IMG/VR virus record: IMGVR_UViG_3300042321_000122
Location: 1-26,167 of that record
DNA from: a virus
Strand: one strand, 5' to 3'
Length of the DNA stretch: 26,167 bases
In this document: positions 11,331 through 16,838 of the stretch, one piece after another
Layout: the number at the start of each line of letters is the position of its first letter
How positions within the stretch are numbered: the stretch's first letter is position 1
The notes under the pieces: model-generated
Databases searched by the model: none
What the model was told of the DNA's origin: nothing
Seen by the model: only the letters and a program-made list of their open reading frames with translations
Translations under genes and position numbers: made by a program

Positions 11331-13496
11331 TTAGCCACCTAGTGCCTTTCTTAAACGCAAGGAACGGGTGTTCCATACGCTTTGCTGTGCATCTTCCTCA
11401 CCACCAAAAATAGGTTCTTTTTCACCCACGATTGCTGCTGTTGGGCTAGTGCCTACGACGCGAGGACTGATTGAACTTGGTGCCACCCTTCTAGCGCCAA
11501 CTCTCGCAGGACGAACATCTAATGGCTCAAAACCGCCTTCAATCTCCGGCTCAGTAAGCGGGAAAGTTTGACTTAACAAATCAATCAAATCTTGTTCAAT
11601 CTGATCCAAGTCAAGTGGCTTTTCTGCCAGTTGAGTTTCTTCACCACCTTTTTGACCACCTTCTTCGCCCATGACGTTGCGTTCACTTTCCAACAACTCT
11701 GAACCACTTAACTCTTCAACAGGGCGATCAGACGCAATTGGTGTGCGACCAGTTGGTACGTTATCACCACCAGTCAACGTAGGTGTAGTTCCAATATCTT
11801 CTGGAGTGCGCGTGCCAGTGTCAGTTCCAGTTTGCGTTCCGGTCTGAGTACCAGTTCTAGTCTGTGTTTGCGTTTGCGTTTGTGTTTGCGTTTCTGTTTT
11901 TGGAAAACGCTGGGTAGCTATTGCAGTTTCAGTACTAGGCGCTACCGCTTTCTTGCCGGGAATGACAACATTAAAATCTTTATTTAAGCTAATCCCGCCT
12001 TGATTATTAGCGGCTGCATACTCAAGAATTGCACGCTCACGCAATGGTAGAGTTTCAATATCAATCGTTTTGGCTTCTGGCGATGGGTTGCTCAGATAGT
12101 CAAAAATTGGAGAGTTTTTAAGTGCCGCAGCTTGTTTTGTTGTGATGTTGAGAATTTTTGCAACACGGTCAACTTCAACAGTAACAGGCGTAGCAACATT
12201 TCTTTGGTCTGCAAAGTCACCAATGTATCGCTGCACACTTGATTTGTATTGCTCTGGCGTAAATTCAGGTTCAAATTTTCCTACAACCTCAATCTTTGGC
12301 AATACATTATCTTGACTTACTGTAGCTGCTCTAGTTGGATCAACTGGCTTTGCTGCCGCATCAATAATTGCTGACGCGAAAGCAAGATCAGGTGAAGCGC
12401 CACCAAGCATTTCATTCTCTTGCACTGCATTACGCAAAGCTCTTGCAGCTTCACTTGCGGTAACACCAGCAGCCAACAAAGTTGCACCAGCACCACCCGC
12501 AGGCAATGCTGCCATTGCGCTAACAGCTACCGCCAAGTCAACCATGCCAGCGGCACGCATAGCTTGTAAGTTTTGTGGCTGCGCAAGTTCTTTTAAGAAC
12601 TTTGGATCAGCAGCAGCACGCGCCTTCCAAGTCTCGATTAGGTCAAGCGAGGCATTGCGTGCAATTTGGTTAATAGCATCAGGCGTAACCGGCCCTTGGA
12701 ACGCTACCTGTACCGTGTTGTTTGGATCGGTTAGTGCTTTGGTAATGTCATCTTCAACCCTAGCAACAGTTGTTTCTTCAACGCCAGCAGCTTTTTTAAT
12801 TTCTTTTTGTATGTCAGCATCCGTTGGTGTGAGCAAATCTTTAGTAGCAGTACGACCTTCTCTTCTAACTGTAGAAAGTCCTGCTTGCAATAGCTCTTCA
12901 CTTAAATTGCCACCCGCAACAGTACGACCAGCCGCTTCACCAACGTCGGCAATAGTTTCCGCGACTTTGCCTGTTTCATCAATATCAAATTGAGATAAGG
13001 CACCAGAACGCGCCAAGGATGCGCCAGCAGAACCAGCAGCGCCAGTGATTGCTGAAAGACCAACATCGCCACCAACCGCCATAGCGCCAGCAGCACCACC
13101 AGCGCCGCCACCAACCGCATTGGCTAAAGCAGTTTGAATGGGTGTTTCAGCACCTTTAGCGCCAATTGCTGTACCAACTTTACCCGCTACTGCACCACCA
13201 ATTTGAGCGCCAGCAAAGCTACCTAACGCAGCTTTACCAATGTCTTCTAAGTCACCACCTTGCGACGCCGAAATCAATCCGGCGGTTACAGGTTCAACCG
13301 CAAGGCCAGTTACGCCAATTTTAGGCAAAAGCTGTGGCGCAGCAACGGCAATGATTAAAACTTCGGGGTTTTCAACAACATAGTCAACAACGTCAACGAC
13401 TACTTCAACAACGTCCTCAACGACATCGCCAACAAATTCAACAACATCACCGACTACATCGGCGGCACCTTCAAGAATATCTGCTACAACGCCCAT
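11331..13496 (-). CDS. Large internal-virion-like protein with Val-rich amphipathic N-terminus, 721 aa
   Basis: A 721-residue protein. The first 45 residues are a quasi-repeat of Val-Val-Asp/Glu steps (GDVVEFVGDVVEDVVEVVVD), an amphipathic pattern. They are followed by a Gly/Ala-rich hydrophobic section (about 80-165), helical regions, then a low-complexity Thr-Gln/Thr-Gly stretch near 535-568 and an acidic, Glu-rich C-terminal part. The Gly/Ala-rich zone resembles membrane-active segments of ejection proteins. It is the first of the four large virion genes after the gp13-like gene, matching the T7 order. No catalytic motif was identified. Confidence 0.62.
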   Translation of the reverse strand: MGVVADILEGAADVVGDVVEFVGDVVEDVVEVVVDVVDYVVENPEVLIIAVAAPQLLPKIGVTGLAVEPVTAGLISASQGGDLEDIGKAALGSFAGAQIGGAVAGKVGTAIGAKGAETPIQTALANAVGGGAGGAAGAMAVGGDVGLSAITGAAGSAGASLARSGALSQFDIDETGKVAETIADVGEAAGRTVAGGNLSEELLQAGLSTVRREGRTATKDLLTPTDADIQKEIKKAAGVEETTVARVEDDITKALTDPNNTVQVAFQGPVTPDAINQIARNASLDLIETWKARAAADPKFLKELAQPQNLQAMRAAGMVDLAVAVSAMAALPAGGAGATLLAAGVTASEAARALRNAVQENEMLGGASPDLAFASAIIDAAAKPVDPTRAATVSQDNVLPKIEVVGKFEPEFTPEQYKSSVQRYIGDFADQRNVATPVTVEVDRVAKILNITTKQAAALKNSPIFDYLSNPSPEAKTIDIETLPLRERAILEYAAANNQGGISLNKDFNVVIPGKKAVAPSTETAIATQRFPKTETQTQTQTQTQTRTGTQTGTQTGTDTGTRTPEDIGTTPTLTGGDNVPTGRTPIASDRPVEELSGSELLESERNVMGEEGGQKGGEETQLAEKPLDLDQIEQDLIDLLSQTFPLTEPEIEGGFEPLDVRPARVGARRVAPSSISPRVVGTSPTAAIVGEKEPIFGGEEDAQQSVWNTRSLRLRKALGG
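11812..11895. repeat. Tandem repeats encoding Thr-Gln / Thr-Gly run
   Basis: GTTTGC and GTTTGT hexamers are repeated on the plus strand, grading into related GT-rich units. They encode alternating TQ, TG and TR dipeptides in the 721-aa virion protein. Length should be variable among relatives. Confidence 0.65.
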
Positions 13497-13498
13497 AG

Positions 13499-13945
13499 TT
13501 ATGCACTCCTTTTCGGCCCAGTTTTCACAGTGACGAAAAACTCACCTTTATCGGTGCGACGCACGTTGTAACCCATTTCTGGATTAGGTGGATTCTTTCC
13601 AATTACTCTAAAGATGGACAAAATTGTTGGATCAGTAAATTTGGTTGCCATCGTGTCAAAGCCCATTTTGTAACAGGCTTTAATAAACTCAATTCCGTTT
13701 TGCAAATAGTTTGCAGCAGTGTCGGCATTGATTGCTCTAAACCATCCAATACGAGGGGCTGCTTTATGTATGATGAAAAGCGTATTTCCTTGGCGAAGGA
13801 ATAAAGTATCATCCATACGAAGTTCGGCATTGATGCCACCAACTGCATCACCTTGCATAACGGATGAATCAGTATTCATAGCCGCAATGCCAATAATATC
13901 TTCTGGACTTAGTTCCCGTTCTCGGCTGTCGACCATCTGAACCAT
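13499..13945 (-). CDS. Possible T7 gp13-like internal virion / GNAT-like protein
   Basis: A 148-residue protein. Its core reads as beta hairpin (DDTLFLRQGNTLFIIHKA), then IGWFRAINAD, a helix (AANYLQNGIEFIKACYKMGFD), a strand (TMATKFTD) and a helix (PTILSIFRVIG), ending in another beta hairpin. This topology is reminiscent of a trimmed GNAT acyltransferase, but the canonical acetyl-CoA loop is not evident. Gene 13 of T7 is about this size and sits just ahead of the internal core genes, as here. GAGGTAATT precedes the ATG. It follows the ketosynthase gene, so an acyl-transfer link is conceivable but unproven. Confidence 0.5.
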   Translation of the reverse strand: MVQMVDSRERELSPEDIIGIAAMNTDSSVMQGDAVGGINAELRMDDTLFLRQGNTLFIIHKAAPRIGWFRAINADTAANYLQNGIEFIKACYKMGFDTMATKFTDPTILSIFRVIGKNPPNPEMGYNVRRTDKGEFFVTVKTGPKRSA

Positions 13946-13947
13946 AA

Positions 13948-15072
13948 TTACCTCACTGGGTCAAAGATTGCTGCGGAATACACATTACCCATTCCAGCGG
14001 CAAGACTAAGGATCAGCCCATCAGGAGTCTCGCAGTCTTCAGACAGAAAAATATCGTCTTTTTCTGTCCGGTTAGGAATAGCAGGTACAACACCATAAAC
14101 CAGATTGTCAAGCAAAAGTAGCGTTTCTAGCAAGCCCGAAGCGCCCATTGTGTGACCTATTTTTGGTTTAAATGACGTTGCCACGAAATCACTTAAAGTG
14201 TTCATCAATGCTAACTTTTCAGACACGTTGTTGGACTCCGTGCCAGTGCCGTGTGTCTTTACAATTTTGATGTCAGTTGGGAACACTTCTCCATACCGCA
14301 TGGCACCTTCAATAGCATCTACATAGCCCGTGCCATCAGGCGCTTGACCTATGGCATTGTTCCATTTCTCTGCCGCATGGTAGGCACCTACCAGCCTAGC
14401 TTTTGGGGTCAGACCATAGTGGTTGATCTCACCTTCTGTTTGCAAAACAGCAAAGGCAGCGCCTTGACCAACGTAAAAGCCGCCGTTTGTACTGTCAAAG
14501 GCGCTAGGCTTAATGTCTTTCTTAGTTTCTTCAGCCAAGGTTAGGCAGGCACCTGAATCACCAAAGAATTGCAAAACGGAATTAGATACAGCGTCTTCTA
14601 CCGACAGGATAATGAAACGGGTAAAACCAAAGGCTTCCAGCATCAAGCAGTCCATCATGACTTTAAGGCTAGAGGCGCAAGCAGAAGAGTCAGTGGCAAT
14701 GTAATCGGGTTTGCAGATCATATTTGCCAGCCTGCCAGCCATGACTTGCGTTAAGGAAAACGGCAGAAACTTGTAGATATAGTGAAGCTGCGTGTGTACT
14801 TGGTTATCTTTGGCATTGATGCCAGCAAAGTGAGCGTTGCCTGCCGCCAGAATAAAAGCAGTCTTGCCTAGTGCCGGATTTTCCCGCAGCCATTCCAGCG
14901 TTGCTGGTGCCATCACCATGTTGGCAAGATTATGCGGAGCATACTTAAAGCCTTGTTTAGTGCCTTGGTAACTTTCCGGTATGAAATGCACACGCTGTGG
15001 GTGCAAAATGTCTTCCATCAGCGTGGTTTGTGGGTTGGATACGGTATGCCCGTAGGTTAGGAATAGGCTCAT
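13948..15072 (-). CDS. Beta-ketoacyl-ACP synthase (KAS, FabF-like)
   Basis: A 374-residue thiolase-fold condensing enzyme. The nucleophile is Cys132 in ATDSSACAS. The two catalytic histidines are His274 in KTHGTGTESNN and His307 in FKPKIGHTMGASG, with the conserved Lys302 five residues before His307. FDSTNGGFYVGQGAA corresponds to the FabF block that reads GF-x-x-G-x-GAG, and the C-terminal LAAGMGNVYSAA to the oxyanion-side Gly-rich loop. KAS I/II enzymes join malonyl-ACP to an acyl chain. At 374 residues it is shorter than usual FabF (about 410), and Asn replaces Asp in the THGTGT-x-x-ND motif. Its ATG overlaps the stop of the acyl carrier protein gene (ATGA). Such an enzyme in a virion operon is unexpected; its acyl product is unknown. 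Confidence 0.9.
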   Translation of the reverse strand: MSLFLTYGHTVSNPQTTLMEDILHPQRVHFIPESYQGTKQGFKYAPHNLANMVMAPATLEWLRENPALGKTAFILAAGNAHFAGINAKDNQVHTQLHYIYKFLPFSLTQVMAGRLANMICKPDYIATDSSACASSLKVMMDCLMLEAFGFTRFIILSVEDAVSNSVLQFFGDSGACLTLAEETKKDIKPSAFDSTNGGFYVGQGAAFAVLQTEGEINHYGLTPKARLVGAYHAAEKWNNAIGQAPDGTGYVDAIEGAMRYGEVFPTDIKIVKTHGTGTESNNVSEKLALMNTLSDFVATSFKPKIGHTMGASGLLETLLLLDNLVYGVVPAIPNRTEKDDIFLSEDCETPDGLILSLAAGMGNVYSAAIFDPVR

Positions 15073-15362
15073 TGCATCACCGCTATGGCTGAATTGACAT
15101 CAAAACCTTCTACAGTCGCATTAGCCACCAGAAAGTCTTTCATTTCACGCAAGTTTGCTGGCCTCATTTCTTTGCCAACCTCTTCTGGTACGGCAAAAGC
15201 ATCACACAAGTACATAGCAATTATCAATAAATCTAGGCTATCAACATCAATAGTTTCAAAGCCAGAATCTATTTGTTCGGCATTGACCGTTGGCTTTCCC
15301 ATTGGTTTAGCCAGTGCCATTGCGGTGTTAAACAGCCGCAAGAAGTCTTCATCGGAAATCAT
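15069..15362 (-). CDS. Acyl carrier protein
   Basis: A 97-residue, mostly helical acidic protein. The phosphopantetheine attachment site is in TIDVDSLDLL (Ser42), followed by the helix II pattern IIAMYLCDAFAVPEE, which matches ACP architecture (DSLD, then a hydrophobic helix ending in Phe and acidic residues). It is about 20 residues longer than a typical FAS ACP, mainly at the C-terminus. No phosphopantetheinyl transferase is encoded in the window, so the host enzyme would have to activate it. It overlaps both neighbours by ATGA and is directly coupled to the ketosynthase, so the two proteins are probably partners. A stand-alone carrier for another acyltransferase is the alternative. Confidence 0.85.
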   Translation of the reverse strand: MISDEDFLRLFNTAMALAKPMGKPTVNAEQIDSGFETIDVDSLDLLIIAMYLCDAFAVPEEVGKEMRPANLREMKDFLVANATVEGFDVNSAIAVMQ

Positions 15363-15706
15363 GTCACCCCCAGTGTTCGTGCTATCTGCTCATGGATCAA
15401 CAAGTGACTGTTTACCCAATCGTAAAAGTCATCCTCTTGGTTGAAATCCAAGTCTAGCAGATTAAAGGGGTCATTTAGGTTAAGAATAGTGGAGTACGCT
15501 TGGTGTTCTTGTTGGTGTATTAACAGCCAATCGTCAAGGTCTTGCGGGTCAGCATCAATGATGGGATAGCGTGGCACATAGAAGCCAGCGTCAGTCAGTC
15601 TTTCCCAAAAGACTTGGTGTTGAATGCCGTTTTCAAACAGGAAGTCGCGGAGGCTGTCCGGCTCTCCGAAGATCGGAGTCGCCAGCGCATCCATATTCAG
15701 GCTCAT
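15359..15706 (-). CDS. Phage protein with duplicated W-x3-H-x3-H motif
   Basis: A 115-residue acidic protein. An N-terminal part contains FGEPDSLRDFLFENGIQHQ. Then two similar helical units occur: DDWLLIHQQEH and YDWVNSHLLIHEQ, each a Trp followed by two His four residues apart, and each followed by a Leu-x-Leu/Val end. Separating them is DPFNLLDLDFNQEDDF. The duplicated His pairs could bind a metal or an aromatic ligand. I recall similar duplicated motifs in small phage virion-region proteins of unknown function. Start and stop both overlap neighbours (ATGA), and it leads directly into the ACP gene. Confidence 0.7.
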   Translation of the reverse strand: MSLNMDALATPIFGEPDSLRDFLFENGIQHQVFWERLTDAGFYVPRYPIIDADPQDLDDWLLIHQQEHQAYSTILNLNDPFNLLDLDFNQEDDFYDWVNSHLLIHEQIARTLGVT

Positions 15707-15924
15707 CTATCAGCCTTTTGATCCAAGCGGTCAAAGATTTTGCCAAGCATTCCTTTAATATCTTGGATGTCTGAACGGTAATCATCCCGGTTGACATAGA
15801 TCATCGGAATTTCCGAGATTCTGTCCTCGATCCTGACGATTGAGCGCGAGATACTGTTCAGTATCCACCCAAAAGCGGTTCCTGCGGCTGCAAAAAGAAT
15901 GTTGATTAGGAACTGAGGCTCCAC
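15703..15924 (-). CDS. Small membrane-anchored coiled-coil protein
   Basis: A 73-residue protein with one N-terminal transmembrane helix (about 6-24, NILFAAAGTAFGWIL) followed by a charged helix ending DIKGMLGKIFDRLDQKAD. The start is GTG at 15924, with GGAG eight bases upstream. This arrangement, membrane anchor then coiled coil, is common among small phage proteins annotated as holin-like or spanin-like. It follows a fibre gene and is coupled to the HxxxH protein. No named family is certain. Confidence 0.65.
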   Translation of the reverse strand: MEPQFLINILFAAAGTAFGWILNSISRSIVRIEDRISEIPMIYVNRDDYRSDIQDIKGMLGKIFDRLDQKADR

Positions 15925-15926
15925 TG

Positions 15927-16838
15927 TCAGACTCCGTAATAAGGGATTTTCTTGGCGCTTCCGTTGACATAGACCGTTATGTAACCTTCTGGTGCCAGCG
16001 GCAAACTAGGATCAGGCATTGCCGCCGTGTTGCTGGTTGCTAAATTAGCATTGAGGTTGGATGTTACCGTAACATTCGATAACGTGGCGTTGCCACTGGT
16101 AATTGTGGTATTCGATAGTGTCAGATTTCCGACACTGGTTGCCGTACCGCCCAAGGTCAACGTCGTGCTACCAAGCGTCGTAGAACTATTTGCTAGGTAG
16201 TTATTCGGGAAAGTTGCAACAACACTGGTAATGTTTGCATTGGCGTAAGTACCGCCAGCCAGCGTGACACTGCTGACATTGCCACCTGTGATTGCCACAT
16301 TGTTGGCATTCTGCGTAGACATGGTGCCAAGGCCAGACACCGCAGAGTTCGCAATAGCAATGGCTACATTGGCTGCACTTGTGATGCGACCTTGAGCATC
16401 AACGGTAACTTGAGATACTTGGCTGGCTGTACCGTAAGTGCCGGGAGTTACTGCCGTATTAGCTAGGGTAACCGTGACATTGCCGGTCAACTGCCCACCA
16501 CCGGAAATGCCTGTTCCTGCCAACACAAACGCTGTATTCGGGGTTGCACCCACATCAGGGGCGGTTAGGACTACTAAGCCTGTCTGTCCGTTGACCGATA
16601 GTACCGCATCAGTGTTGTCTATCTTTTGCCAGACAGCACCATTAAATGCCGCAATGTCATTGACCTGCCAATCCGTAATTCCGTTCAGGTTAGTCGAACC
16701 TGCCACCGACACCACATAGTAATCACCCTTATCACCAACACTGGAGGTCAACGTAGGATCGTTGGTCGCAGCGTTCCAAGTACCCTTGTAAACAAGCGCA
16801 CCGATAACATTGATGTAATTACTGACGGTCTTTAGCAT
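15927..16838 (-). CDS. Tail fibre / receptor-binding protein, 303 aa
   Basis: A 303-residue protein. The N-terminal domain (YKGTWNAATNDPTL, GDYYVVSVAG, WQVNDIAAFNG, VWQKID) is the small beta domain seen at the base of many phage fibres. SVNGQTGLVVLTAPDVGAT (81-99) is the usual linker motif. The remainder is a Ser/Thr/Asn/Gly-rich repetitive stalk with NATLSNVTVTS-type repeats. The C-terminus (YITVYVNGSAKKIPYYG) resembles a short terminal cap. It shares stalk repeats with the larger fibre at 17801-19477, so the two probably make related fibres or a branched set. No depolymerase motif is apparent. Confidence 0.82.
   Translation of the reverse strand: MLKTVSNYINVIGALVYKGTWNAATNDPTLTSSVGDKGDYYVVSVAGSTNLNGITDWQVNDIAAFNGAVWQKIDNTDAVLSVNGQTGLVVLTAPDVGATPNTAFVLAGTGISGGGQLTGNVTVTLANTAVTPGTYGTASQVSQVTVDAQGRITSAANVAIAIANSAVSGLGTMSTQNANNVAITGGNVSSVTLAGGTYANANITSVVATFPNNYLANSSTTLGSTTLTLGGTATSVGNLTLSNTTITSGNATLSNVTVTSNLNANLATSNTAAMPDPSLPLAPEGYITVYVNGSAKKIPYYGV

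What the first reader, a model, noticed from the sequence alone, without database searches (positions are those of the whole stretch)
13948..15362. Acyl carrier protein plus beta-ketoacyl synthase inside a phage virion operon
Seen in the sequence: an ACP with DSLD (Ser42) overlaps by ATGA a ketosynthase with Cys132, His274, His307 and Lys302 in the right contexts. Both lie in an unbroken, tightly coupled late operon between fibre/membrane genes and internal-virion genes. Known: these two proteins are the core of fatty-acid and type II polyketide elongation. I know of no established role for such a pair in virion assembly. Inference: the phage makes or diverts an acyl chain late in infection, for example to change envelope lipids before lysis, to acylate a virion protein, or to make a small molecule.
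Basis: partly seen in the sequence, partly recalled or inferred. Interest (0 to 1): 0.93.

Follow-up and report, generated by a model that had tools for sequence, protein, structure and literature searches.

The report
Phage's own acyl-chain gene cassette
A widespread group of uncultured tailed phages carries its own two-gene fatty-acid-building unit, fixed next to a likely acyl-transfer gene and the gene for a protein the phage injects, which suggests (not yet shown) that these phages attach a fatty chain to a virion protein.

Summary
Window 15069-15362(-) encodes an acyl carrier protein (ACP; DSLD, Ser42) and 13948-15072(-) an intact FabF-type ketosynthase (KS), overlapping by ATGA. They are no chance capture. 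Among 110 distinct full-length phage KS, Cys132, His274, Lys302 and His307 never vary, and every one has the ACP directly upstream. The KS form a virus-only clade far from the cellular KS tested, under strong purifying selection, with their own invariant gate and pocket residues.

New here: the pair lies directly upstream of a third gene (13499-13945) whose predicted structure has a GNAT acyltransferase fold, followed by the first ejection protein (INT1). In 50 relatives chosen by a neighbouring gene the pattern is nested: ACP+KS occur only with the GNAT gene, and the GNAT gene only with the INT1-type protein (one weak exception). Where the cassette is lost, INT1 is replaced.

Best model (inferred): host enzymes arm the ACP, KS sets the acyl chain, and the GNAT-like protein acylates INT1, as in NodF-NodE-NodA or RtxC. 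No enzymatic step is shown. Rivals: lipid remodelling, diversion of host fatty-acid synthesis, acyl-ACP as assembly factor. Isolated phage acpP/fabF genes are known; I found no description of this module.

The parts
15069..15362 (-). Acyl carrier protein, 97 aa, DSLD with Ser42 as phosphopantetheine site
   Evidence: all 111 distinct phage ACPs have DS(L/M)D; the profile matches PDB ACPs at 8.7e-5
13948..15072 (-). FabF-type beta-ketoacyl-ACP synthase, 374 aa; C132, H274, K302, H307; gate M361 in place of Phe400, N79 in place of Ile108
15069..15072 (-). ATGA overlap of ACP stop and KS start
   Evidence: ATGA in 100 of 110 distinct pairs
13499..13945 (-). g148: 148 aa protein with predicted GNAT (acyltransferase) fold, no canonical CoA loop; positional counterpart of T7 gp13 and P22 gp14
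   Evidence: structure and Foldseek; always downstream of KS; T7/P22 positions
11331..13496 (-). INT1: first internal/ejection protein, 721 aa; N-terminus MGVV followed by amphipathic V/G/D/E repeats; proposed acylation substrate
   Evidence: role by position, homology and inference
15359..15706 (-). p115: conserved 115 aa protein of unknown function directly upstream of ACP; used as cassette-independent anchor, not part of the module
   Evidence: present with and without the cassette

Best explanation
The two genes are a virus-specific specialised acyl-elongation pair. The ACP is charged on Ser42 by the host's phosphopantetheinyl transferase (inferred). The KS condenses malonyl units onto an acyl chain on this ACP, and host FabD/FabG/FabZ/FabI complete each cycle (inferred). 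The chain is not for bulk lipid: the dedicated ACP hands it to the GNAT-fold protein g148 encoded directly downstream, which transfers it to the first ejection protein INT1, perhaps at its N-terminal Ser/Gly, so that INT1 inserts better into the host membrane or is packed correctly (inferred). Shown: intact residues, fold, strict ACP-KS pairing, order ACP-KS-g148-INT1, nested gene content, purifying selection. Not shown: any enzymatic step, the chain, or the target.
For: Catalytic residues invariant in 110 KS and the ACP serine in 111 ACPs; ACP adjacent in 110/110. KS dN/dS 0.02-0.10, ACP 0.04-0.25. KS fold and PDB matches; ACP profile. Phage KS on one side of a 100/100 branch. Order ACP-KS-g148-INT1 in two different tail/fibre gene settings. 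g148 model pLDDT 90 with GNAT topology; PDB hits are GNAT acetyltransferases, prob 1.00, E 2e-4 to 1e-3, TM 0.5-0.6. Anchor survey: 30 loci with ACP+KS+g148+INT1, 9 with g148+INT1, 10 with none, 1 with weak g148 only (Fisher p 1e-9 for g148 with INT1, ignoring shared ancestry). Loss of the cassette goes with a different protein in the INT1 slot; KS remnants show real loss. INT1 next to g148 starts M-[SG] in 100 of 116 distinct sequences, against 131 of 512 for other ORFs. Precedents: RtxC has a GNAT fold lacking CoA-binding elements and uses acyl-ACP (PMC8339906); NodF+NodE make a special acyl chain (PMC3557214) and NodA N-acylates from ACP (PMC5080398).
Against: No activity, acyl group or target was measured. 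g148 also occurs without ACP-KS (15 of 115 distinct), so it does not need this pair. g148 has no sequence match to any Pfam or PHROG family, its GNAT assignment is structural with moderate TM, and its catalytic residues are unknown. Nested gene content could reflect common ancestry and linkage, since the loci are not independent. L102 has M-G at its corresponding ejection protein without g148. The lost-cassette phages show the pair is dispensable in some settings.
Confidence: 0.36

Rival explanations
1. Lipid-remodelling auxiliary metabolic genes: the phage pair boosts or redirects host fatty-acid elongation late in infection to change membrane composition before assembly or lysis.
For: Intact FabF-like residues; acpP-fabF is the bacterial order too; other phages carry fabF or fabG-acpP-fabF, interpreted as fatty-acid AMGs (PMC8224337, PMC7029224, PMC10653327).
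Against: Position locked upstream of g148 and the ejection gene rather than scattered; invariant divergence from FabF at pocket and gates; dedicated divergent ACP although the host ACP is abundant; very long virus-only branch.
Confidence: 0.22
2. Interference or diversion: the ACP-KS pair sequesters malonyl groups, acyl chains, or the host PPTase/FabD, shutting down host lipid synthesis.
For: No partner enzymes such as PPTase or ketoreductase in 34 records; elongation enzymes compete for FabD (own knowledge).
Against: Catalytic Cys/His/Lys kept in every member, more than sequestration needs; late-operon position is late for host shut-off.
Confidence: 0.12
3. Assembly factor: acyl-ACP binds a virion protein non-covalently as a chaperone, as mitochondrial acyl-ACP does with LYR proteins; KS sets the chain length.
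For: Strict placement in the virion operon; nested with INT1 type; g148 is the positional counterpart of T7 gp13 and P22 gp14, annotated as assembly/scaffold proteins.
Against: Does not by itself explain a GNAT-fold partner; no LYR-like protein was sought or seen.
Confidence: 0.14
4. Hitchhiking module: ACP-KS serves an unrelated function, such as a small molecule or exclusion of other phages, and stays at this place only through vertical descent and homologous exchange.
For: Clean losses in close relatives (L101, L102, L204, L206, L212-L217); g148 persists without it.
Against: Same position in phages with otherwise different tail genes; loss tracks exchange of g148/INT1; no other biosynthetic genes.
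Confidence: 0.16

Closest known systems
Bacterial FabF (KAS II) with AcpP, acpP-fabF gene pair
   Same: Cys-His-His-Lys catalytic set, thiolase fold (TM about 0.8), ACP gene directly upstream of KS gene
   Different: About 81-98 bits to NCBIfam FabF models against cut-offs near 500; Phe400 gate is Met361, GFGGTN is GMGN(V/I)Y, Ile108 is Asn79 (Ser in three), Asp311 is Asn282; about 30 residues shorter at the N-terminal side; no fabD/fabG nearby
Rhizobial NodF-NodE-NodA
   Same: Dedicated ACP plus dedicated KS without own reductases, next to an N-acyltransferase that takes acyl groups from ACP
   Different: The acceptor is a chitin oligosaccharide; no sequence membership shown; the phage acceptor is unknown
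RtxC/HlyC toxin-activating acyltransferases
   Same: GNAT fold without CoA-binding elements, acyl-ACP donor, protein acceptor that enters membranes (PMC8339906)
   Different: No sequence relation found; donor and acceptor unproven for g148; RtxC uses host ACP, without its own KS
Phage fatty-acid AMGs (roseobacter prophage fabG-acpP-fabF, pelagimyophage fabF, ACP in phage vB_EliS-R6L)
   Same: Phage-borne acpP/fabF genes
   Different: Those are described as host-like metabolic genes; here a virus-only clade fixed before a GNAT-fold gene and an ejection gene
T7 gp13 / P22 gp14 (PF11090 / DUF2824)
   Same: g148 sits at the same place, directly upstream of the first ejection gene; a DUF2824 phage protein is among its structural matches (rank 43)
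   Different: No sequence match of g148 to either Pfam family; T7 and P22 have no ACP-KS at that place

Membership tests
Beta-ketoacyl-ACP synthase (KAS I/II type) | Cys-His-His triad plus Lys in the right contexts | tested here: met
   C132, H274, H307, K302 aligned to FabF C163, H303, H340, K335; invariant in 110 KS
Beta-ketoacyl-ACP synthase (KAS I/II type) | Thiolase/KS fold | tested here: met
   Model matches FabF structures, E about 1e-23, TM about 0.8
Beta-ketoacyl-ACP synthase (KAS I/II type) | Condensation with malonyl-ACP | not testable with these tools
   needs enzyme assay
FabF equivalog | Score above NCBIfam TIGR03150 cut-off (493.75) | tested here: not met
   84.1 bits: a KS, but not FabF itself
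FabF equivalog | GFGGTN gating loop with Phe400 | tested here: not met
   GMGN(V/I)Y in all phage KS with the column
Acyl carrier protein (PP-binding) | DSL serine at the start of helix II | tested here: met
   DSLD in 109 and DSMD in 2 of 111 distinct ACPs
Acyl carrier protein (PP-binding) | Profile match to known ACPs | tested here: met
   Profile to PDB ACPs 8.7e-5; single sequences stay below the Pfam cut-off
Acyl carrier protein (PP-binding) | Phosphopantetheinylation | not testable with these tools
   needs mass spectrometry
GNAT acyltransferase (g148) | GNAT fold | tested here: met
   pLDDT 90; PDB matches are GNATs, prob 1.00, TM 0.5-0.6
GNAT acyltransferase (g148) | Canonical CoA-binding loop (Q/R-x-x-G-x-G/A) after strand beta4 | tested here: not met
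   The region reads FRALNADTARNY; as in RtxC this argues against CoA, not against acyl-ACP
RtxC (HlyC-type) | Sequence family match | tested here: not met
   No Pfam family matched convincingly by g148
NodFE/NodA system | Dedicated ACP plus KS beside an N-acyltransferase | tested here: inconclusive
   ACP and KS met; acyltransferase by fold only; acceptor unknown
T7 gp13 / P22 gp14 families | Match to PF11090 or PF11039 | tested here: not met
   No match; same gene position

The most novel reading that the evidence does not exclude
These phages make a dedicated acyl chain on their own ACP-KS and use a GNAT-fold enzyme to acylate an ejection protein, so that the injected protein is a lipidated membrane-entry device: a virally encoded protein-fatty-acylation pathway for virion proteins.
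Probability: 0.3. Interest if true: 0.93.

Novelty: new variant of a known kind. Interest (0 to 1): 0.8.

Why it matters
It shows that a pair of core fatty-acid enzymes has become a stable, virus-specific part of the virion operon in a widespread group of aquatic and other uncultured phages, and it points to a concrete, testable job in building or arming the ejection machinery. How short-tailed phages get ejection proteins across and into membranes, and what T7 gp13 and P22 gp14-like proteins do, are open questions; a GNAT-fold partner with its own acyl donor makes them directly testable by mass spectrometry.

Tried and rejected
(1) Chance or ORF artefact: rejected by fold, residues and 110 conserved pairs. 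(2) Recent capture in one genome: rejected; virus-only clade, many contigs, GC like its neighbours. (3) Decayed enzyme: rejected for the window; decay is seen only in other contigs (L114/L204, L206, possibly L215). (4) Defence gene: no PADLOC match. (5) Complete phage FAS/PKS: no PPTase (PF01648) or ketoreductase (PF13561) in 34 records; absence from fragments is not proof. (6) Bacterial origin: in 198 genomes of one phylum the nearest cellular KS scored 94 bits against 648 for the single phage contig. (7) I first thought ACP-KS-g148 moved as one unit; the anchor survey showed g148 alone in 9-11 loci, so the model was changed to nested dependence. (8) The idea that the g148 beta4-alpha3 motif (FRALNAD) marks ACP-KS carriers is suggestive only: older no-KS lineages mostly lost the Arg, but L367-L372 keep it, and the scan used that motif as its pattern, so that sample is biased. 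(9) The 574 scan matches were not all inspected; counts rest on fetched loci only.

Full report
What is there. The window is a 26,167-base virus record. On the minus strand a long, tightly spaced late operon runs from capsid genes to internal-virion genes; around the finding the order in transcription is fibre-like 15927-16838, p73 15703-15924, p115 15359-15706, ACP 15069-15362, KS 13948-15072, g148 13499-13945, INT1 11331-13496, with junctions of +2 or -4 bases and -8 after INT1.

Is it real. The KS passes the Pfam C-terminal domain cut-off, matches FabF in PDB sequence and by predicted structure. Against E. coli FabF the whole reactive set is kept (C163, H303, T305, T307, E314, K335, H340, E349), while Phe400 is Met361, GFGGTN is GMGN(V/I)Y, Ile108 is Asn79 and Asp311 is Asn282. 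In 110 distinct full-length phage KS the catalytic residues never vary, and the deviations are themselves nearly or fully invariant. So this is a separate KS type with its own gate and pocket bottom, not a decaying FabF. The ACP is too divergent for single-sequence Pfam calls, but its family profile finds PDB ACPs, and all 111 distinct ACPs keep DS(L/M)D. KS dN/dS is 0.02-0.10 and ACP 0.04-0.25 where measurable.

How widespread. One scan of IMG/VR with the window KS gave 43 loci; a scan with an alignment kept 80 of 574 reported matches (the rest not inspected). Among annotated phages one complete genome, MW202545.1, has a 58% KS with the ACP unrecognised as a hypothetical protein. In bacterial genomes the only close copy lies on a 37.6 kb contig of a Balneolaceae MAG with the same phage gene order. 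In a maximum-likelihood tree with 20 cellular KS the phage KS are one side of a 100/100 branch of length 4; the cellular sample is small.

Neighbourhood. In the KS loci the order ACP-KS-g148-INT1 holds wherever the contig is long enough, both in phages with p115/fibre genes upstream and in phages with different (c5/c6) tail genes upstream. g148 has no Pfam or PHROG match, but its model (pLDDT 90) has alpha-alpha-beta-beta-beta-alpha-beta-alpha-beta-beta order, and its PDB matches are GNAT acetyltransferases. Its place directly before the first ejection gene is that of T7 gene 13 and P22 gene 14, and a DUF2824 protein is among its viral structural matches. It lacks the usual GNAT CoA loop, which is also reported for the RtxC acyltransferases that use acyl-ACP (PMC8339906).

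Gain and loss. Two phages with 87-89% identical capsid protein, MW202825.1 and MW202753.1, have p115 but no ACP, KS or g148, and no INT1-type protein by HMM. Using p115 as an anchor independent of the cassette, 50 non-redundant loci fall into 30 with ACP+KS+g148+INT1-type, 9 with g148+INT1-type, 10 with none of the four, and 1 with a weak g148 match only. ACP and KS are never apart. Two contigs carry a remnant of the KS C-terminus before g148 (L114/L204 and L206), and L215 carries a short stretch that reads like the same KS segment (not recovered by tblastn), so the pair has been lost from carriers. Where g148 is gone an unrelated protein fills the INT1 slot while later ejection genes are kept. 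INT1 next to g148 begins M-[SG] in 100 of 116 distinct sequences, often M-[SG]-A-V-V followed by amphipathic repeats; other ORFs of these phages have S or G at residue 2 in 131 of 512. MW202753.1 has M-G without g148, so this is a hint, not a rule. All these counts share ancestry; the p-values ignore that.

How it most likely works. Shown: intact enzymes by sequence and fold, strict pairing, fixed order, nested gene content, selection. Inferred: the host PPTase arms Ser42, because none was found in 34 related records, and host reductases complete the cycle; KS defines a special chain; g148 takes it from the ACP and acylates INT1. The closest working analogy is NodF-NodE (dedicated ACP and KS, PMC3557214) with NodA (N-acyltransferase from ACP, PMC5080398). 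Membership in those families is not claimed.

What is known. Phage or prophage acpP and fabF genes have been reported as fatty-acid AMGs (PMC8224337, PMC7029224, PMC10653327, PMC12783922) and an ACP in an Erythrobacter phage (PMC5463345). My ten searches of an open-access library found no description of this virus-specific ACP-KS-GNAT-ejection module; subscription papers and preprints were not covered.

Verdict. Observation confirmed, first interpretation partly supported, new variant of a known kind, high interest. The step from gene content to protein acylation is the weak link, and mass spectrometry of INT1 would settle it.

Noticed in passing
window 11331-13496; L048, L025, L012 and others: INT1 ejection proteins share an N-terminus M-[SG]-A-V-V followed by V/G/D/E amphipathic repeats, though the rest of the protein varies greatly in length (about 270-1960 aa).
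   Followed up: partly
L114:3024-3143, L206:4361-4480: Two contigs keep only a remnant of the KS C-terminus between p115 and g148: decay of ACP-KS with g148 retained.
   Followed up: partly
L215:4415-4618: Short ORF reading LGLLKALLLLDNLAYRVVSG resembles the KS segment SGLLETLLLLDNLVYGVVP; possible KS remnant where g148 and INT1 are also gone.
   Followed up: partly
L214:4498-6237, L215:4483-6216: Unrelated 577-579 aa protein fills the INT1 slot while the two following ejection genes are conserved.
   Followed up: no
L045:19675-21053 (MW202545.1): In GenBank the ACP is annotated as hypothetical and the KS start is placed 156 bases inside the conserved ORF.
   Followed up: no
L099 (JAGYJQ010000016.1, 37605 b): Phage contig with the cassette binned in a Balneolaceae MAG: a weak host lead.
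   Followed up: partly
window 13948-15072: KS matches phrog_35856 (unknown function, 2.5e-33) and many ACPs match phrog_28189: two unnamed phage families that could be renamed.
   Followed up: no
window 15703-15924: p73 matches phrog_462 (labelled lipoprotein, 1e-7), directly upstream of p115.
   Followed up: no
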